Position numbers and translations under genes: made by a program. From positions 15,048-33,007 of the forward strand of contig UZAE01012726.1 of the NCBI GenBank assembly GCA_900617975.1: a DNA stretch of 17,960 nucleotides, in the 5' to 3' direction. This DNA is from Rodentolepis nana (taxonomy: Eukaryota > Platyhelminthes > Cestoda > Cyclophyllidea > Hymenolepididae). The notes under the pieces are model-generated. The model had not been told where the DNA came from, ran no database searches, and saw only the letters and a program-made list of their open reading frames with translations. Each line of letters begins with the position of its first letter. Within the stretch, counting starts at the first letter, position 1. Positions 1 through 17,830 of this stretch are shown here, piece after piece.

Positions 1-72
1 TTCCTACTTTTAAAATTTATTACTTAAATCACGCTCCAAGCCTAATTAAGTAATAAATTTTAAAAGTAGGAA
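1..72. repeat. perfect 27-bp inverted repeat (hairpin)
   Basis: Bases 1-27 are the exact reverse complement of 46-72, with an 18-base spacer at 28-45. The arms are AT-rich and begin TTCCTACTTTTAAAA. The left arm starts at the window edge, so the repeat may be longer. It could be the end or core of a foldback element or MITE, or a long RNA hairpin if transcribed. Only the symmetry itself is certain. Confidence 0.85.
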
Positions 73-1732: not shown

Positions 1733-1900
1733 GTCGACTGATGGTTTATAGACTTTTTTTGCAGTATGAGTATAAGTTGTCCAAGATGCACCACGTGGAG
1801 GTAAATCTATTGCGCACTCACCCCTCTGTGAAGTCAGAGGTCAACTAAAGGGCTAATGATGACCATCTCAAAGACTTTCATTTGATATAAATAATTATTT
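1733..1900. mobile_element. ribozyme-headed SINE-like element, copy A, 5'-inverted
   Basis: The element head lies in inverted orientation at 1733-1824 (its first G is at 1824 on the minus strand). It joins at about 1821-1825 to the element's 3' part in plus orientation, from the CTCTGTGAAGTC segment through the conserved AACTAAAGGGCTAATGAT to a GATATAAATAATTATTT tail. The pyrimidine-rich body between them is missing. An inverted 5' piece joined to a forward 3' piece with an internal deletion is the known signature of twin priming during LINE-driven retrotransposition. I could not find a clear target-site duplication. Confidence 0.85.
1748..1824 (-). ncRNA. HDV-like ribozyme, degenerate (copy A)
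   Basis: The core order is still visible on the minus strand: a GGGG start, the P3/L3 segment ACCUCCACGUGGU, an ACAAC join, a P4-like UAUACUCAUA and a GC-A-run J4/2 followed by AAGUCUAU. P1 is damaged (the 3' strand reads GCAUCUU) and P1.1 reads GGA. Probably inactive, although the presumed catalytic C is kept. Confidence 0.65.
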
Positions 1901-3159: not shown

Positions 3160-3231
3160 GGGGTGTGCGATAGACTTACCTCCACATGGTGTACCACGGG
3201 CAACATACTCTCAAACGGCAAAAAAAGTCTA
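3160..3231 (+). ncRNA. HDV-like ribozyme, decayed (copy B)
   Basis: P1 pairs GGGGUGU with GUACCAC but has a G-A mismatch at the second pair. P3 (ACC/GGU) is intact, L3 reads UCCACAU with the expected G changed to A, and P1.1 GG is kept. P4 has lost most pairing (CAUAC against AAACG). The GGCAAAA J4/2 with the presumed catalytic C and an intact P2 (AUAGACUU/AAGUCUAU) remain. Probably inactive. Confidence 0.72.
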
Positions 3232-3489
3232 TAAACTGGCAGTTGACTTCTGACTTTAAACTACCATGACCCCACTGTTTGTCATTTTCGACCACTTCCA
3301 CAGTGTCCATCTTACCTGTTCTTTGCCTTCTTGGCTGTCTGTCTCTTTTACATCTTTGAATCACTCTTCTGTTCGCCTTCTCTACTTTTCTCACTTTGAT
3401 GTTCCTCCTCCTTCTCTCTGTGAAACCCGAAGTCAGTTAAAGGGCTAATGATAAGTATCATAAAACCTGCCATTTGAAGTAAATAATTA
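3160..3489 (+). mobile_element. ribozyme-headed SINE-like element, copy B
   Basis: A nearly full-length forward copy. It has a GGGGTGTGCG head, the GGCAGTTGACTTC motif near 3237-3250, a pyrimidine-rich body, the conserved 3' block (AGTTAAAGGGCTAATGAT, 3435-3452) and a GTAAATAATTATTT tail. It contains no meaningful open frame. The flanks TAATTTCAAC (before) and TTATTTCTGC (after) match at 7 of 10 positions and may be a decayed target-site duplication. Substitutions in the head suggest an older copy. Confidence 0.88.
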
Positions 3490-4000
3490 TTTCTGCGGCA
3501 GTCTAGGTCTATTATGTCCAGACAGTTTTGAATAATTAAGTTTATTGGTTTGAAGAATCTGAACCTTCGAACACTCATGCTGATTGAAATGTAACTAGCG
3601 TTCTATTATAACTCAAGTACAAGCTCACTGGTCGTCACCTTTCTGCCCATGTAAACTTATATATTAAGGAAAGTTGAGATAATTCCTCCTAAAGAAAAGC
3701 ACTCATAGGCGCCACATGTGGTGAGAGATTATATCGGAGGAAGAGAATGCAAGAAACAGAGAGAAATGGAGAAAGAGCGAGAAGGGTGAGGGGGTGAAAA
3801 GAGAATTCATTAAAAGCAAAGGCAGAATTTGAGCATGGGAAGGGAAGATTAACAGGTGGAAGCCAGGCAAAGGAAGACGAGGGAGAAAACAGGCTGGAAA
3901 GGGAGTGGGTTTTGTAACGCCCTTCCCCCCCCCCCTTCGCACAAAATTCTCGGTACTGAGTACACTCTGGAAACTATCTTATTAATCTGGAGACTACCTA

Positions 4001-5154: not shown

Positions 5155-5168
5155 GTGTTGAAAAATAT
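5155..5168. repeat. target-site duplication, left side of copy C
   Basis: GTGTTGAAAAATAT is repeated exactly at 5492-5505. The two 14-base copies flank the minus-strand element and mark its ends precisely. Confidence 0.93.
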
Positions 5169-5491
5169 TTATTTATTTCAAATGGCAGGCGTTTTGATAG
5201 ATATCATTAGCCATTTAGTTGACTTCGGGCTCCACAGAGGGAAGGTTCATCAAAGTAGCAGAAAGGCGAGGGGTGGGGAACAGAAGAGCGATTCACAGAT
5301 GTAAAAGAGGTAGACAGACACAAAGGTGGAGAAAAAGGTAAGGTGAGTACTGTGAAGTAGTCGAATATGCCATACATTGGGGTGAGGGTAGTTTGAAGTC
5401 AGAAGTCAACTGCCAGTTAATAGACTTTTTTGCTGTATGAGTATACGTTGCTCAGGGTGCACAACGTGGAGGTAAGTCTATCGCACACCCC
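5169..5491 (-). mobile_element. ribozyme-headed SINE-like element, copy C, full length
   Basis: A 323-bp full-length copy on the minus strand, bounded by perfect 14-bp target-site duplications. On its own strand it runs from GGGGTGTGCG through the ribozyme head, a TTGACTTCTGACTTCAAACTA segment, a pyrimidine-rich body and the 3' block ending GCCATTTGAAATAAATAA. There is no coding capacity and no Pol III A/B box that I can see, so it depends on a partner LINE (not in the window) for reverse transcription and probably on outside promoters for transcription. Its first base abuts the duplication exactly. Confidence 0.94.
5420..5491 (-). ncRNA. HDV-like ribozyme (copy C)
   Basis: P1 GGGGUGU/GCACCCU is intact, including a terminal G-U wobble as in the HDV ribozyme. 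P2 AUAGACUU/AAGUCUAU is perfect and L3 is UCCACGU. P4 hairpin CGUAU-ACUC-AUACA has lost its outer C-G pair. J4/2 is GCAAA. Two further lesions: the third P3 pair is broken (ACC/UGU) and the second P1.1 G is A. Likely weakened. Confidence 0.83.
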
Positions 5492-5808: not shown

Positions 5809-5880
5809 GGGGTGTGCGACAGGCTTTAATCCACGCAATGCACTCTGGGCAACGTATACTCATACGGCAAAAATGTCTAC
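5809..5880 (+). ncRNA. HDV-like ribozyme, decayed (copy D)
   Basis: P1 is kept with one G-U change (GGGGUGU/GCACUCU). P1.1 GG and the GCAAC join, the P4 hairpin CGUAU-ACUC-AUACG and the GCAAA J4/2 are all intact. P2 (ACAGGCUU against AUGUCUAC) and P3 (UAA/AAU around UCCACGC) are damaged, so activity is doubtful. Confidence 0.72.
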
Positions 5881-5948
5881 AAACCTGTAGTTGATTTCCC
5901 ACTTCCAGCTGCCACGTCCCGACTGTAGGTCATCTTCTACCACTTCCA
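5809..5948 (+). mobile_element. ribozyme-headed SINE-like element, copy D, 3' part missing at an N
   Basis: The first ~140 bases of the element are present: the GGGGTGTGCG head, a clear P4/J4-2 segment, a diverged GTAGTTGATTTCCCACTTC segment and the start of the body up to CCACTTCCA. Similarity stops exactly at the single N (5949); what follows is unrelated to the family. Either a real rearrangement or an assembly join explains this. Confidence 0.85.
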
Positions 5949-6198: not shown

Positions 6199-6268
6199 GG
6201 GGTGTGGGATAGACTTATCTCCACTTGGTGCATCCTGGCAACGCATATTCATACGGCAAAAAGTCTAT
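6199..6268 (+). ncRNA. HDV-like ribozyme (copy E)
   Basis: P1 GGGGUGU/GCAUCCU keeps all seven pairs through a G-C to G-U change. P3 AUC/GGU keeps pairing by a U-G wobble, P2 is intact and the J4/2 GCAAA is present. L3 reads UCCACUU (expected G lost), one G after P1' is deleted, and P4 has one C-A mismatch. Possibly weak or inactive. Confidence 0.78.
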
Positions 6269-6500
6269 CAACTGGCGGTTGACTTCTCACTTCAAACTAC
6301 CATCACCTCACTCTATGCCATATTCGACTATTTCCACAGTATTCATCTCACCTTTGTTCTACCTTTGTGTCTGTCTCTTTTCCATCTTTGAAATACTCTT
6401 CTGTTCCTTCGTCTCGATCTTTTTCACTTTGATGTTCCTTCCCCTCTGTGAAGCCTGAAGTCAACTAAAGGGCTAATGGTAACCACCAAGATATAAATAA
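6199..6500 (+). mobile_element. ribozyme-headed SINE-like element, copy E, full length
   Basis: A 302-bp forward copy with all segments in order: ribozyme head, GGCGGTTGACTTCTCACTTC, pyrimidine-rich body, CTCTGTGAAGCCTGAAG, AACTAAAGGGCTAATGGTAACC and a GATATAAATAA tail. Near-perfect 14-bp target-site duplications flank it. A short deletion removes part of the usual ACGCCTGCCATTT segment before the tail. The run of five T at about 6420 would stop Pol III, which argues against Pol III producing full-length RNA. Confidence 0.93.
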
Positions 6501-7307: not shown

Positions 7308-7322
7308 CCACTTAGGGGGATT
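7308..7322. repeat. target-site duplication, left side of copy F
   Basis: CCACTTAGGGGGATT is repeated exactly at 7645-7659. The boundary with the element is ambiguous by a base or two because both carry C at one end and T at the other. Confidence 0.92.
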
Positions 7323-7644
7323 TATTTATTTCAAATGGCAGGCGTTTTGATAGCTATCATTTGCCATTTAGCTGACTTCGGGCTTCACAGAGGGAAGATT
7401 CATCAAAGCAGCAGAAAGTTGAGGGGTGGGGAACAGAAGAGCGATTCACAGATGTAAAAGAGGCAGATAGACACAAAGGTAGAGAAAAAGGTAAGGTGAG
7501 TACTGTGGAAGTTGTCAAATAAGACAACCAGGGGGTCGTGGTAGTTTGAAGTCAGAAGTCAAATGCCGGTTAATTGACTTTTTTGCCGTATGAGTATACG
7601 TTGCCCAGGGCGCACCACGTGGAGGTAAGTCTATCTCACATCCC
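7323..7644 (-). mobile_element. ribozyme-headed SINE-like element, copy F, full length
   Basis: A 322-bp minus-strand copy flanked by a perfect 15-bp target-site duplication. Its body and tail are very close to copy C, including the shared segment with GAACAGAAGAGCGATTCACAG on the plus strand, so C and F belong to one recent subfamily. It has no coding capacity. Confidence 0.94.
7572..7644 (-). ncRNA. HDV-like ribozyme, P1 damaged (copy F)
   Basis: P3 ACC/GGU, L3 UCCACGU, P1.1 GG, the GCAAC join, P4 CGUAU-ACUC-AUACG and the GCAAA J4/2 all match the family consensus exactly. P1 carries an inserted A (GGGGAUGU) and a changed 3' strand (GCGCCCU), and P2 has one mismatch (AAGUCAAU). The P1 lesions probably reduce or abolish cleavage. 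Confidence 0.82.
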
Positions 7645-9230: not shown

Positions 9231-9451
9231 GGCAGGTTGCTGGGTAGTAACTCATTATTTTACAAATTGCTTTTCATTATCATAGCAATGACCAATTTAA
9301 GTTGTTTATCTGATTTGAGATCAACCTCCAACGAGCAAATTTCTTGATTCTTCCAATGTCAATCAGGAATTATCGATCTTACATCATTATTTCGCATTTT
9401 CTTCGAATGACTGAGAAGATGACATTTTTTGTTTATATTAATCTACTTTCT

Positions 9452-9750
9452 ACTTCCACGTGGTGCACCCTGATCAACGTATATTCCTACGGCAAAAAAG
9501 TCTATTAACTGACAGTTGACTTCTCACTTCAAACTACCATCACCTCACTCTAGGCCATATTCGACTTTTTTCACAGTACTCACCTCACCTTTGTTCTACC
9601 TTTGTGTCTGTCTCTTACATCTTTGAAACACTCTTCTGTCCCCCCCTCGACTTTTTTCAACTTGATTTTCCTTCCCCTATGTGAAGACTGAAGTCAACTA
9701 AAGGGCTAATGATAACCATCAAGACGCCTGCCGTTTGATATAAATAAATA
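9452..9750 (+). mobile_element. ribozyme-headed SINE-like element, copy G, 5'-truncated
   Basis: The copy starts inside the ribozyme, near the P3/L3 segment (TTCCACGTGGTGCACCC), and then runs through P4, the GGCAAAAAAGTC segment, body and tail to GATATAAATAAATA. The flanks ACTTTCTAC (9445-9453) and ACTTTCTGC (9751-9759) match at 8 of 9 positions and are likely target-site duplications. Premature end of reverse transcription explains the lost 5' strands of P1 and P2; this copy cannot self-cleave at the usual site. Confidence 0.9.
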
Positions 9751-9757
9751 ACTTTCT

Positions 9758-10128: not shown

Positions 10129-10142
10129 GGGTTATCAAAGAT
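10129..10142. repeat. target-site duplication, left side of copy H
   Basis: GGGTTATCAAAGAT is repeated exactly at 10438-10451. Confidence 0.93.
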
Positions 10143-10437
10143 TTATTTGTATCAAATGACAGGCGTCTTCATGGTTACCATTAACCCTTTAGTTGACTTC
10201 AGGCTTCACAGAGAGGAAGGTACAGTCGAGAGGGGGGGGGAACAGAAGAGTGTTTCGAAGATGTACAAGAGACAGACACAAAGGTAGGAAAAAGGTGAAG
10301 TGGGTACTGTGGAAGTAGTCGAATATGACATAGTGAGGTGATGGTGAGAAGTCAACTGTCAGAAAATAGACTTTTTCGCCGCATGAGTATACGCTGCCCA
10401 GGGTGCACCACATGGAGGTAAGTTTATCGCACACCCC
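10143..10437 (-). mobile_element. ribozyme-headed SINE-like element, copy H, near full length
   Basis: A 295-bp minus-strand copy bounded by perfect 14-bp target-site duplications. Head, body, conserved 3' block (here ATTAACCCTTTAGTTGACTTC on the plus strand) and a short A/T tail are present. The TCAAACTACC segment after the first TTGACTTC is missing. It has one of the two best-preserved ribozyme heads in the window. Confidence 0.93.
10366..10437 (-). ncRNA. HDV-like ribozyme, well preserved (copy H)
   Basis: P1 GGGGUGU/GCACCCU is intact with the terminal G-U wobble. P3 ACC/GGU is intact and P1.1 GG faces CC of L3 (UCCAUGU, one change from consensus). P4 CGUAU-ACUC-AUGCG keeps pairing through a U-G wobble. 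J4/2 reads GCGAA, the same as in HDV itself, with the C in the catalytic position. P2 has one A-C mismatch. A good candidate for residual activity. Confidence 0.87.
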
Positions 10438-11510: not shown

Positions 11511-11630
11511 GTCAGCGACCATGCCACATAGAAGGCACCGGTTTTCGTCCGATAACCGAAGTTAAACAAGGTCGGGTAGGGTTAGTATTTGAATGGGTGA
11601 CTGGCTGGGAATACCCGGTGTTGATGACTT
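11511..11630 (+). rRNA. 5S rRNA-like sequence, diverged, probably a pseudogene or retro-copy
   Basis: Exactly 120 nt with 5S features throughout. The ends GTCAGCGAC and GTTGATGAC pair at eight of nine positions as helix I. The middle contains CCGGTTTTCGTCCGATAACC, then GAAGTTAAACAAG (A box), GTCGGGTAGGGTTAGTA (intermediate element) and GAATGGGTGACTGGCTGGGAA (C box). This is the invertebrate form of the 5S internal promoter region, with scattered substitutions. No run of four T follows; four bases later the SINE-like copy I begins. The divergence suggests a pseudogene, or a 5S head carried by a chimeric retro-copy. Confidence 0.88.
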
Positions 11631-11634
11631 CTTT

Positions 11635-11706
11635 GGGGTGTGCGATAGACTTACCTCCACGTTGTGCACCCTGGGCAACGTATTCTCATGCGGCAAAGCA
11701 GTCTAT
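11635..11706 (+). ncRNA. HDV-like ribozyme downstream of 5S (copy I)
   Basis: P1 GGGGUGU/GCACCCU is intact. P2 has seven pairs (AUAGACU/AGUCUAU) and L3 UCCACGU and P1.1 GG match consensus. P4 CGUAU-UCUC-AUGCG pairs fully with a U-G wobble and J4/2 is GCAAA. The one clear lesion is the third P3 pair (ACC/UGU). Cleavage would separate the 5S-containing leader from the element RNA. Confidence 0.85.
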
Positions 11707-11936
11707 AAACCGGCAGTTGACTTCTGACTTCAAACTACCATGACCTCATTGTTTGTCATATCCGACCACTTCCACGGTATTCACTTTTCCTTTTTCTCTA
11801 CCGTTGTGTCTGCCTTTTGTATTCGTGAATCCCTCGACTTTTGCGATTTTGATGATCCTCTCCAATATGAATCCGGAAGTCAACTAAGGATCTAGTGTTA
11901 ATTATCATAAAGCTCGACATTTGATATAAATAAATA
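11635..11936 (+). mobile_element. ribozyme-headed SINE-like element, copy I, joined to 5S
   Basis: A forward copy of about 302 bp starting at the first G of GGGGTGTGCG, only four bases (CTTT) after the 5S-like sequence. Head, GGCAGTTGACTTCTGACTTC segment, body, diverged 3' block (AACTAAGGATCTAGTGTTAATT) and GATATAAATAAAT tail are in order. I find no target-site duplication at the 5S junction (GATGACTTCTTT is not repeated after the tail), nor a clear one around the 5S-plus-element unit. A Pol III transcript started in the 5S unit would pass through the ribozyme before the first T run (11784). Confidence 0.9.
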
Positions 11937-12852
11937 TTTTCTAGGTCATAGAGAATTCTCACTCTTTTATTTCTTTAAAACAATCAAGATCTTAAACATC
12001 GTTGACCTTGAAACACTCGTTTAACCTAATTTATCATTTTTTTCATTTACCGATGTCGTTATATGTTACCATTTTTTGAAACTGTTGTTACCAATTACGG
12101 AGGTATCCAAAAAACCTGTCCTGACTTTTGAAAGGCAAATTGAATCTGCGCATATTTTAAGTCAGTCTTTTAGAAGAAGTGGCATTTTTTGAGAAATGAA
12201 ATATTAATGAAATGACACAAAATTTCAGTACATGCTACCTATACCTCTGGCGAAGAATTCAATTAAAGTAACTTGGTGTGCTGAAATTGATGGCACCAAA
12301 CACTAATTGCTTCTGTTTAGTTTTTTAATACAATTACAATTTCAAGTGGTGTGAAATGAAATCTAACAAGAGAGAGAAGCTTTTTTCTGCTACAATTGAT
12401 AAAATATTCCAAACTATTGAAATAGGCGTCATGTCCTGTCATTTGTTCCAGTCCACCACCCATTGCCAAACCCATTTTACCTCAAATGGAAAATAAAATA
12501 AAATTTCCTTAATAAATATTTTACCAATATTTTAGCTGAATCCTTAAACTAGAGGAGCTAACTAAATCATAAAACAAAACTGTAGTTCTTGTGTTCTATA
12601 TTACCTACGTTCTTGCAACTAACAATTTGAAACAAAACTAGACTAATCCTAGCATTTGTTATTTCCATAATCAAACATGTCTGAACCGAAGCATAAAGTT
12701 GGATGGAACTTTTACGTCTCTCTGAGCATAAAACCTCCTCTTTAAAACTTCTCAATTCGAATAAAATCTCCAAATACACGTCACGTACTTACCTACATTC
12801 ATATACACTTTCTAAGTGTTAGAATGCAGTGATCTTATCGTGCCCACACTCG

Positions 12853-14212: not shown

Positions 14213-14226
14213 ATTTTTTTTACCTC
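14213..14226. repeat. target-site duplication, left side of copy J
   Basis: A run of T followed by ACCTC, matched by 14911-14923 with one T fewer. It abuts the first G of the element. Confidence 0.9.
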
Positions 14227-14298
14227 GGGGTGTGCGATAGACTTATCTCCACGTGGTGCACCCTGGGCAATGTATACTCATACGGCAAAAAAGCCTAT
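14227..14298 (+). ncRNA. HDV-like ribozyme, well preserved (copy J)
   Basis: P1 14227-14233 pairs with 14258-14264 (GGGGUGU/GCACCCU, terminal G-U). P2 14237-14244 pairs with 14291-14298 with one A-C mismatch. P3 14245-14247 pairs with 14255-14257 (AUC/GGU, one wobble). L3 is UCCACGU (14248-14254); its CC (14249-14250) can form P1.1 with GG (14265-14266). P4 is UGUAU-ACUC-AUACG (14271-14284). J4/2 starts G14285, presumed catalytic C14286, AAA. Every element of the HDV fold is present in the right order, giving cleavage just before 14227. Confidence 0.9.
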
Positions 14299-14610
14299 TG
14301 ATCGGCAGTTGACTTCTGACTTCAAACTAAAGTCTATTACCTGGCAGTTGACTTCAAACTACCATGAGTAAGTCTATTAACTGGCAGTTGACTTCTGAGT
14401 TCAAACTATCATGACCCCAAGTCTATTAATCGGCAGTTGACTTCTGACTTCAATTACCATGATCTATTAACTGGCAGTTGACTTCTCTATGTCATATTCG
14501 TTATATTAACTGGCAGTTGACTTCTCACTTCAAACTACCCCGTCAATTACCTGGCAGTTGACTTCAAACTACCATGATCCCCCTATTGATCGGCAGTTGA
14601 CTTCTGACTT
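14291..14610 (+). repeat. eight-unit ~40-bp tandem array inside copy J
   Basis: The GGCAGTTGACTT core recurs eight times with spacings of 39, 40, 49, 41, 39, 41 and 39 bases. Most units start with a version of (AA)GTCTATTA, the 3' strand of ribozyme stem P2, and continue into TTCAAACTACCATGA. The units alternate between CTGGCAG and ATCGGCAG forms. Confidence 0.95.
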
Positions 14611-14910
14611 CAAACTACCAAGACCCCACCGCATTTCATATTCGACTAAGTAAACAGTCCAAGACCTCACTGCATTTCATATTCGACTAATTCCACAGTA
14701 CTCACCTTATTTCTACCTTTGTGTCTGTCCGTCTCGTTTACGTCTGTGAATCATTATTCTGTGCCCCCTCTCGACTTTTTGCCACTTTGGTGTTCCTCTT
14801 CCTGTCTGTTAAGCACGAAGCCAACTAAAGGGCTAATGATACCTATCATAACGCCGGAAGCCAACTAAAGGGCTAATGATACCTATCATAACGCCTGCCA
14901 TTTGAAATAA

Positions 14911-14923
14911 ATTTTTTTACCTC
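14911..14923. repeat. target-site duplication, right side of copy J
   Basis: A, seven T and ACCTC, matching 14213-14226 except for one T. Confidence 0.9.
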
Positions 14924-17306: not shown

Positions 17307-17611
17307 TGAAGAAAAGTGATATGGGAAGGAATTTAAATTGATATAAGAATAGGATCAAAGTTAATTTAAAACTAACGAGCTAGAATTTGGGGAAAGTCTT
17401 TTCATCTACCCGTCTTGACTATGTAGATCGTGGACTAATTGATCCACTGCCAATATTGTCTTACTTCTTTAATGTTAGAAATTGCCGTTTATTTTCTTTG
17501 AAATGAGTAGAGGACAAATATTGGCCCACAAAATTCCTATTCTTGAGGATAAGTTGACTTAGAGGGATAGTTTTTTAGGCTTAATGGTGGATTTAAATGT
17601 ACATTTAAAGA

Positions 17612-17668
17612 TTTATTTATTTATTTCAAATGGCAGGCGTTTTGATAGTTATCATTAGCCCTTTAGTT
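17612..17668 (-). mobile_element. SINE-like family, 3' end only (copy K)
   Basis: On the plus strand, ATTTATTTATTTCAAATGGC and the following CAGGCGTTTTGATAGTTATC, then CATTAGCCCTTTAGTTTGA, match the tail and conserved 3' block of copies C and F closely. The rest is missing, as in a strongly 5'-truncated insertion. No clear target-site duplication. Confidence 0.9.
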
Positions 17669-17748
17669 TGATATCTGCCACGGAAAAATTATGGGAATCT
17701 AAATGTTAAGATCAAAACATGCGTCACTCTGCAAATCAAACCATAATA

Positions 17749-17830
17749 TTTATTTATTTATTTCAAATGGCAGGCTTTATGATATTTATCATTAACCCTT
17801 AAACTTTGACTTCAGCTTCCCCATGGGTGG
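17749..17830 (-). mobile_element. SINE-like family, 3' end only (copy L)
   Basis: TTTATTTATTTATTTCAAAT then GGCAGGCTTTATGATA and CATTAACCCTTAAACTTTGA match the family's 3' end on the minus strand. A G-rich stretch at 17826-17838 may be a remnant of the body. It lies 80 bp from copy K in the same orientation. Confidence 0.87.

What the first reader, a model, noticed from the sequence alone, without database searches (positions are those of the whole stretch)
14227..14298. A short non-coding retrotransposon family carries an HDV-like self-cleaving ribozyme at its 5' end
The first ~72 nt of the repeat fit the HDV ribozyme strand by strand: P1 GGGGUGU/GCACCCU (terminal G-U wobble as in HDV), P2 AUAGACUU/AAGUCUAU, a 3-bp P3, L3 UCCACGU with the CC that forms P1.1 with GG, the UGGGCAAC join, a P4 hairpin, and J4/2 GC(A/G)AA with the catalytic C. 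P1 and P2 cross, giving the nested double pseudoknot. The presumed catalytic C is kept in all nine copies that retain the head (A, B, C, D, E, F, H, I, J). HDV-like ribozymes are established in R2, RTE and related LINEs and in trypanosome L1Tc/NARTc; I know of no description for this family.
Basis: partly seen in the sequence, partly recalled or inferred. Interest (0 to 1): 0.96.

Follow-up and report, generated by a model that had tools for sequence, protein, structure and literature searches.

The report
Tapeworm SINE headed by HDV-like ribozyme
A short parasitic DNA repeat, present in thousands of copies in the dwarf tapeworm genome, begins with a sequence that folds like the self-cutting RNA of hepatitis delta virus, which probably trims its RNA to the exact end needed for copying itself; a longer, enzyme-encoding relative begins the same way.

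Summary
The head at 14227-14298 has the HDV nested double pseudoknot, with one A·C mismatch in P2. Rfam's HDV-F-prausnitzii model matches 8 of 9 window heads at E<=10 (best 7.5e-5), none at gathering score; genome-wide 37 of 61 scored places pass it. The host is Rodentolepis (Hymenolepis) nana. A head pattern occurs 16,057 times in 107 Mb. Of 61 near-full copies, 39 have target-site duplications of >=9 nt; 23 end exactly before G1, the predicted cut site. A partner LINE (endonuclease, RT, RNase H) has a homologous head and tail. In a minority, complete 5S rRNA is fused in front of G1 (34 places besides the window's copy I) and was inserted as one unit, as expected if reverse transcriptase ran off an RNA end at G1 and jumped to 5S RNA. 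Most likely a SINE that cuts itself out of read-through transcripts and is copied by that LINE. No covariation was found; cleavage is untested. The kind is known (R2 SIDEs, L1Tc/NARTc); I found no tapeworm description in the library searched.

The parts
14227..14298 (+). Copy J, HDV-like ribozyme head: P1 7/7, P2 7/8 (A15·C68), P3 3/3, P1.1 2/2, P4 5/5
14286..14286 (+). Presumed catalytic C (equivalent to HDV C75; equivalence recalled)
14227..14911 (+). Whole copy J, about 685 nt, lengthened by internal tandem repeats (14349-14620 and 14817-14895)
14215..14226 (+). Target-site duplication of copy J (12 nt shared with the 3' flank), ending right before G1
1748..1822 (-). Copy A head (P1 5/7, P4 3/5), next to a + strand tail at about 1822-1900: looks like a 5' inversion
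3160..3492 (+). Copy B; head 3160-3232 (P4 2/5)
5160..5491 (-). Copy C (ends approximate); head 5420-5491; 14-nt target-site duplication ending at G1
5809..5948 (+). Copy D, head 5809-5880 (P3 lost); match ends at about 5948
6199..6489 (+). Copy E; head 6199-6268 (one G of P1.1 missing)
7318..7644 (-). Copy F (ends approximate); head 7573-7644 (best Rfam hit of the window); 15-nt target-site duplication ending at G1
9434..9756 (+). Copy G, head truncated at its 5' end
10135..10437 (-). Copy H (ends approximate); head 10366-10437 (P2 7/8, otherwise complete); 14-nt target-site duplication ending at G1
11635..11940 (+). Copy I; head 11635-11706
11511..11629 (+). 5S rRNA copy fused in front of copy I; the same 5S+head junction recurs at 34 other scored places

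Best explanation
The repeat is a non-autonomous non-LTR retrotransposon (SINE, or 'SIDE') of the dwarf tapeworm. Its first 72 nt are an HDV-like self-cleaving ribozyme. Proposed working: the element is transcribed within a longer host transcript; the ribozyme cuts just before its first G and frees an RNA with an exact 5' end (inferred); the protein of a partner LINE, which has a homologous ribozyme head and a similar 3' tail, recognises that tail and copies the RNA into DNA at a nicked site by target-primed reverse transcription; when the enzyme runs off the RNA end at G1 it now and then jumps to another small RNA, mostly 5S rRNA (inferred from fused copies). Shown: structure fit, 5' ends at G1, target-site duplications, 5S fusions at G1, LINE homology, pattern counts. 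Not shown: cleavage, transcription, mobilisation in trans.
For: RF02682 matches 8 of 9 window heads at E<=10; in the genome 37 of 61 scored places (of 25,212 candidates) pass its gathering score, best 54.5 bits; of 14 control genomes 8 have matches at E<=10 but 0 pass it. Strict descriptor including P2: 0 of 20,000 shuffles, 0 places outside element copies. Exact duplications of >=9 nt in 39 of 61 near-full copies against 2.8% of 1,200 mispaired controls; 23 of 39 end exactly before G1, 7 more within one base. Of 33 dispersed 5S-like places, 28 continue straight into the head; in 21 composites read, 20 have the element downstream in the same direction, in 19 of them starting at its nt 1-3; duplications of >=9 nt lie near the 5S start in 4 of 12 testable and at G1 in 0 of 12. 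In 25 near-full copies not selected by sequence the head diverges less (0.068) than the middle (0.113; lower in 23 of 25, Wilcoxon p=5e-5) and the tail (0.100; 20 of 25). A LINE copy has a homologous head (4-97) and tail (256-309) on the strand of its RT; 22 of 37 LINE 5' pieces hold a near-complete head, with the catalytic C in 20 of 22. Runs of 6 and 7 T inside the SINE and A/B-box scores no better than shuffles speak against an own RNA polymerase III promoter.
Against: No covariation: pairs changed on both sides and still paired number 8 against a shuffled mean of 5.3, maximum 11, over 113 heads; 0 in the window set. Nested-fold energy is ordinary, z=-0.31. No window copy passes the strict descriptor or the Rfam gathering score. 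22 of 61 copies have no duplication of >=9 nt and 16 of the 39 that do end elsewhere than right before G1; in the window 4 of 9 heads have one ending at G1, a fifth (E) has 11 nt ending 3 nt earlier, and A, B, D, I share at most 6 nt. Some heads have lost the C: LINE 2 of 22, unselected SINE 5 of 43. 5' ends and 5S jumps at G1 show where the RNA ended, not that a ribozyme made that end; a transcription start at G1 would do as well.
Confidence: 0.88

Rival explanations
1. The head is mainly an internal DNA promoter that starts transcription at G1, as the Pr77 segment of trypanosome L1Tc is in part; the ribozyme fold is secondary or dormant.
For: Pr77 is reported as both promoter and ribozyme (PMC4035085 passages); the head is the least diverged part of the element; a start at G1 would also give 5' ends and 5S fusions there.
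Against: A promoter role alone does not explain P1, P2, P3, P1.1, P4 and the C in the right order. Both roles can coexist.
Confidence: 0.07
2. Chance resemblance: a repeat end that happens to look HDV-like.
For: No covariation and ordinary nested-fold energy; the descriptor was written after seeing the sequence.
Against: 0 of 20,000 shuffles and 0 places outside the elements match the descriptor; LINE and SINE majority heads both fit despite changes in L4 and at position 41; Rfam, which I did not tune, gives E down to 1.1e-7.
Confidence: 0.03
3. A 5S rRNA-derived RNA polymerase III SINE whose 5S part is usually lost.
For: 5S is fused in front of G1 at 34 scored places besides copy I, and in 4 of 12 testable composites the duplication of >=9 nt lies near the 5S start, so 5S and element were inserted together.
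Against: In the 61 near-full copies 23 duplications end right before G1, without 5S. The spacer between 5S and G1 differs (TCTT, TTTTT, TTAT, longer) and 5S is joined to LINE-type heads too, as expected of separate template jumps. A and B boxes are not better than shuffles, with T6/T7 inside the SINE.
Confidence: 0.02

Closest known systems
R2 SIDEs and R2/R1 hybrid SIDEs of Drosophila (PMC3414825; passages read)
   Same: Short non-autonomous element with a 5' HDV-like ribozyme and a LINE-derived 3' end; those ribozymes self-cleave in vitro. R2 also shows jumps from its 5' end to U12 snRNA and tRNA, like the 5S and tRNA-Pro fusions here.
   Different: Those sit in rDNA at fixed sites and were rare in the survey; this family is dispersed, in a flatworm, with 16,057 head and 12,413 tail pattern matches, and its middle (about 98-246) was not found in the LINE copies examined.
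L1Tc/NARTc, ingi/RIME and SIDER elements of trypanosomatids, with the Pr77 ribozyme (PMC4035085; passages read)
   Same: LINE and short partner share a 5' head of about 77 nt that is an HDV-like ribozyme, and the 3' end.
   Different: Other phylum and sequence; promoter activity of the tapeworm head unknown; whether the tapeworm LINE belongs to the ingi clade was not tested.
HDV-F-prausnitzii (Rfam RF02682) and HDV ribozyme (RF00094)
   Same: Order of helices, L3/P1.1/J4-2 core; RF02682 is the best Rfam model.
   Different: Here P2 8 bp, J1/2 3 nt, P4 of 5 bp; in the window RF00094 matches four heads only at E 0.56-5.4; in one composite it reaches E 0.002, below its gathering score.
Metazoan retrozymes with hammerhead ribozymes (PMC7761336; passages read)
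   Same: Small non-autonomous retroelements that carry a self-cleaving RNA.
   Different: Hammerhead and circular RNAs there; HDV-like here. Circles were not looked for.
Persaeus SIDE with CR1 in Lepidoptera (PMC6740152; search listing only)
   Same: A dispersed, widespread SIDE with a LINE partner in animals.
   Different: The listing mentions no ribozyme; the paper was not read.

Membership tests
HDV-like ribozymes | Nested double pseudoknot P1/P2/P3/P1.1/P4 in fixed order | tested here: met
   Consensus SINE and LINE heads match a strict descriptor; 0 of 20,000 shuffles. No single window copy passes it
HDV-like ribozymes | Catalytic C in J4/2 | tested here: met
   9 of 9 window heads; LINE 20 of 22, unselected SINE 38 of 43
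HDV-like ribozymes | Covariance-model hit at curated threshold | tested here: met
   Genome: 37 of 61 scored places; 4 of 20 composite loci. Window copies: 0 of 9
HDV-like ribozymes | Compensatory base changes within the family | tested here: not met
   8 double changes against shuffled mean 5.3, maximum 11, over 113 heads; expected for copies of one recent lineage, so weak evidence
HDV-like ribozymes | Mg-dependent self-cleavage before G1 | not testable with these tools
   Needs bench assay; only the coincidence of element 5' ends with G1 is shown
SINE/SIDE mobilised by a LINE | Target-site duplications and 3' tail | tested here: met
   39 of 61 copies with >=9 nt, 2.8% in controls; AAAT-rich tails
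SINE/SIDE mobilised by a LINE | 3' end shared with a LINE of the same genome | tested here: met
   Tail homology 0.7-1.5 kb downstream of RT on the same strand in 6 of 20 RT loci: L001, L002, L008, L013, L015, L016; the other 14 showed none within their flanks, and some look like LTR elements
SINE in the strict sense | Internal pol III promoter | tested here: not met
   A/B box scores no better than shuffles; internal T6/T7. A minority with 5S in front may be an exception; 'SIDE' may be the better term
L1Tc/ingi clade | RT phylogeny within ingi clade | not tested
   No reference RTs on hand; domain set endonuclease, RT, RNase H only

The most novel reading that the evidence does not exclude
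A tapeworm LINE/SINE pair in which the ribozyme replaces the promoter of a classical SINE: the short element has no pol III promoter of its own, lives on host read-through transcripts cut by its HDV-like ribozyme, and by this route reached more than ten thousand dispersed pattern matches (roughly 4-5% of the assembly if each were a full copy), possibly the largest set of HDV-like ribozymes in one animal genome (not checked against others); its RT jumps repeatedly from the ribozyme-made RNA end to 5S rRNA, founding 5S-headed composites.
Probability: 0.55. Interest if true: 0.68.

Novelty: new member of a known kind. Interest (0 to 1): 0.62.

Why it matters
It extends ribozyme-headed short retroelements from rDNA-bound elements of flies and from trypanosomes to an abundant dispersed family in a flatworm. 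Cyclophyllidean genomes are described as streamlined with inactivated mobile elements, and taeniids as having very few (starts of abstracts in listings, PMC12471100 and PMC4558846). It offers thousands of natural ribozyme variants, identifies the likely partner LINE, shows recurrent 5S fusions at the predicted cut site, and predicts that host transcripts of R. nana are cut wherever an intact copy lies in sense orientation.

Tried and rejected
A DNA search with the head found nothing, as the tool skips very common words; the pattern search then found 16,057. Covariation was looked for and not found. The head core in the viral and prokaryote collections: 0 matches, so no outside relative was compared. 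The 5S copy before copy I: I first took it for an unrelated neighbour because a query that ended before the SINE matched 33 places; a longer query showed that 28 of these 33 run into the head, so that reading was dropped and the composites were examined. L143 has about 90 nt between 5S and head that look tRNA-Lys-like by eye (recalled), but ARAGORN and Rfam at E<=1 do not confirm it. The LINE copies L015 and L016 have the head inverted next to truncated LINE, which fits 5' inversion; the C2663 copy has it in sense. Dropped before counts: in the TSD test, copies not matching from the first 6 nt to nt 305, without 45 nt of 5' and 80 nt of 3' flank, and duplicates (60 of the loci had been fetched by RF02682 or by an exact head pattern, so base conservation is partly by selection); 15 of 37 LINE pieces without a near-complete head; in the divergence test all but the 25 near-full copies not chosen by sequence, measured against a consensus made from the selected copies. 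MAFFT placement of indels in the A-run lowers the P2 counts. The tail pattern allows 3 mismatches and two LINE tails compared differ by 3 and 5, so some LINE tails may be counted; the LINE heads compared differ by 4 from the SINE head pattern. Literature: nine of ten searches used; 'Hymenolepis' with 'ribozyme' gave 0 papers. The library holds open-licence papers only; Repbase was not available.

Full report
What was claimed.

Check of the observation. The window holds nine heads (A-F, H-J) and one 5'-truncated copy (G). Mapped to the family consensus, copy J has P1 7/7, P2 7/8 (one A·C mismatch), P3 3/3, P1.1 2/2 and P4 5/5; the C is present in 9 of 9 heads. Two strings in the finding (UGGGCAAC, AAGUCUAU) are consensus, not copy J. 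No window copy is free of defects: H and J lack one P2 pair, D has lost P3, A and B have weak P4.

Independent tests of the fold. At Rfam gathering thresholds only a 5S rRNA is found in the window. At E<=10, RF02682 (HDV from F. prausnitzii) matches 8 of 9 heads, best 41.6 bits (cut-off 44), E=7.5e-5, four of them at E<0.01; RF00094 matches four heads at E 0.56-5.4. In the whole genome (107,105,815 bases, 4,701 contigs) RF02682 scored 61 places of 25,212 candidates; 37 pass the gathering score, best 54.5 bits; of 14 control genomes 8 have matches at E<=10 and 0 pass. I read the heads of 30 of the 61, and all 30 look like this family. The Rfam model leaves P2 unpaired, so P2 is extra evidence: a strict descriptor with P1, P2, P3, P1.1, P4 and the C, written after seeing the sequence, matches the SINE consensus and the LINE majority head, 0 of 20,000 dinucleotide shuffles, and in 273,889 bases on both strands 19 places inside element copies (overlapping loci not merged) and 0 outside. 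Against: nested-fold energy is ordinary (z=-0.31) and there is no covariation, as expected when copies descend recently from one lineage.

Whose genome. A COX1 gene on C1797 reads with the flatworm mitochondrial code and is closest to tapeworm COX1 (best hit unnamed 91%, best named Pseudanoplocephala crawfordi 89%, Taenia 87%; that these are cyclophyllideans is recalled). LINE proteins named Rodentolepis nana lie on contigs of 24,280, 14,554 and 89,128 bases, the lengths of C403, C4334 and C2222. The genome is therefore taken to be R. (Hymenolepis) nana.

The element. The consensus is 323 nt with an AAAT-rich tail. A 28-nt head pattern occurs 16,057 times (<=3 mismatches; reversed control 0), a tail pattern 12,413 times (may include LINE tails). 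These are pattern matches, and tandem heads count more than once; if each were a full copy they would make roughly 4-5% of the assembly. Of 61 distinct near-full copies 39 have exact target-site duplications of >=9 nt (13-14 nt in 19 of them), against 2.8% of 1,200 mispaired controls; 23 of the 39 end exactly before G1, 7 more within one base. Agreement among the 61 is at most 0.61 per position in the 12 bases upstream and at least 0.84 in the first 12 bases from G1 on (the copies were required to match from the first 6 nt). In the window, copies C, F, H and J have duplications of 12-15 nt ending at G1; E has 11 nt ending 3 nt earlier; A, B, D and I share at most 6 nt. In the 25 near-full copies not selected by sequence, the head diverges less than the middle (0.068 against 0.113, lower in 23 of 25) and the tail (0.100, lower in 20 of 25), which suggests constraint on the head among active lineages.

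5S in front of copy I. The 5S rRNA copy at 11511-11629 lies 5 bases before copy I. A query that ended before the SINE matched 33 dispersed places; with the head included, 28 of these 33 run on into the head, and 34 scored places besides the window span the junction (40 of 2,063 candidates scored, so a lower bound; one pair on C2564 may be a duplication). I fetched 20 of the places and read them with copy I: 20 of 21 have the element downstream in the same direction (L142 does not); in 19 it starts at nt 1-3, directly or after a T-rich spacer of 3-8 nt in most (longer in L135, L140 and L143; L141 has a partial head first); both SINE-type and LINE-type heads occur. Rfam confirms 5S in 20 of 20 fetched loci and RF02682 at gathering score in 4. 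Where both ends can be tested (12), a duplication of >=9 nt lies near the 5S start in 4 (in L124, 15 nt, and L140, 12 nt, ending exactly before 5S nt 1) and at G1 in 0. So 5S and element were inserted together, at least in these. One of 56 loci scanned has a tRNA-Pro 11 nt upstream of a diverged head (L031), and the sequences outside tRNA and tail share 13 nt by eye. This is what template jumping from an RNA that ends at G1 to the 3' end of another small RNA would give; R2 of Drosophila does the same with U12 and tRNA (PMC3414825 passages). It shows where the RNA ended, not by what means.

The partner LINE. RT-bearing loci were found by Pfam RVT_1 (150 of 460 candidates scored; 20 fetched). 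SINE-like tails lie downstream of the RT on the same strand in 6 of the 20. The copy on C2663 runs from a SINE-like head (4-97, in sense) through endonuclease (PF14529), reverse transcriptase (PF00078) and RNase H (PF00075, one piece above and one below its cut-off) to a SINE-like tail, about 4.1 kb, with broken frames and a G in place of the catalytic C. Its 5' UTR found 85 matches (40 of 564 candidates scored); of 37 pieces (36 fetched, plus the C2663 copy) 22 hold a near-complete head, with the catalytic C in 20 of 22. The LINE head differs from the SINE head at P1 position 7 (C-G in place of U·G), position 41 and in L4; the majority head still passes the descriptor. A LINE head pattern occurs 359 times (<=2 mismatches). 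No homology was found between the SINE's middle and the body of the LINE copies read, apart from SINE copies inserted in or near them.

How it most likely works. Shown: fold, 5' ends, duplications, 5S fusions, tail and head shared with a LINE, pattern counts. Inferred: read-through transcription (no pol III boxes above shuffles and T6/T7 runs inside), cleavage before G1, target-primed copying by the LINE protein, template jumps.

What is known. The kind exists: R2 SIDEs of Drosophila, whose ribozymes self-cleave (PMC3414825, passages), and NARTc/RIME/SIDER with L1Tc/ingi in trypanosomatids (PMC4035085, passages). HDV-like ribozymes in R2 and other LINEs are mentioned in PMC7761336 (passages). 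No paper in the library holds both 'Hymenolepis' and 'ribozyme'. I file it as a new member of a known kind, of interest for its scale, its host, its LINE partner and its 5S fusions.

Noticed in passing
window 14349-14620 and 14817-14895: Copy J is about 685 nt long because segments of the element are tandemly repeated inside it (units of about 39-80 nt and a perfect 40-nt doublet).
   Followed up: partly
window 1748-1900: Copy A's head on the minus strand abuts a plus-strand tail of the same family: looks like a 5' inversion during insertion; LINE copies L015 and L016 show the same.
   Followed up: partly
window 11511-11940; L124-L143: Recurrent 5S rRNA + ribozyme-headed element composites, both with SINE-type and LINE-type heads; whether repeated jumps or one lineage was not settled by a tree.
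   Followed up: partly
L031 1501-1656; L143 179-274: tRNA-Pro upstream of a diverged head (ARAGORN); in L143 a stretch between 5S and head that looks tRNA-Lys-like by eye but is not confirmed.
   Followed up: partly
G000 C90:18569-18685, L028, L102, L105, L110, L111: Tandem duplications of parts of the ribozyme head or of sequence just after it (e.g. three head-pattern matches within 117 bases on C90) recur in SINE and LINE copies; origin not studied.
   Followed up: no
(P0150, P0155): Among the named relatives of the tapeworm LINE's RT outside tapeworms are spider proteins (54% over 30% and 45% over 38% of the query) and a fish protein (24%); possible horizontal transfer, not tested.
   Followed up: no
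window 1-72: Perfect inverted repeat with 27-nt arms (1-27 and 46-72) at the window's left end, possibly a MITE-like end; only weak miRNA-family matches (E 0.35 or more).
   Followed up: no
window 17602-17663 and 17745-17800: Two minus-strand tail fragments of the same family.
   Followed up: no
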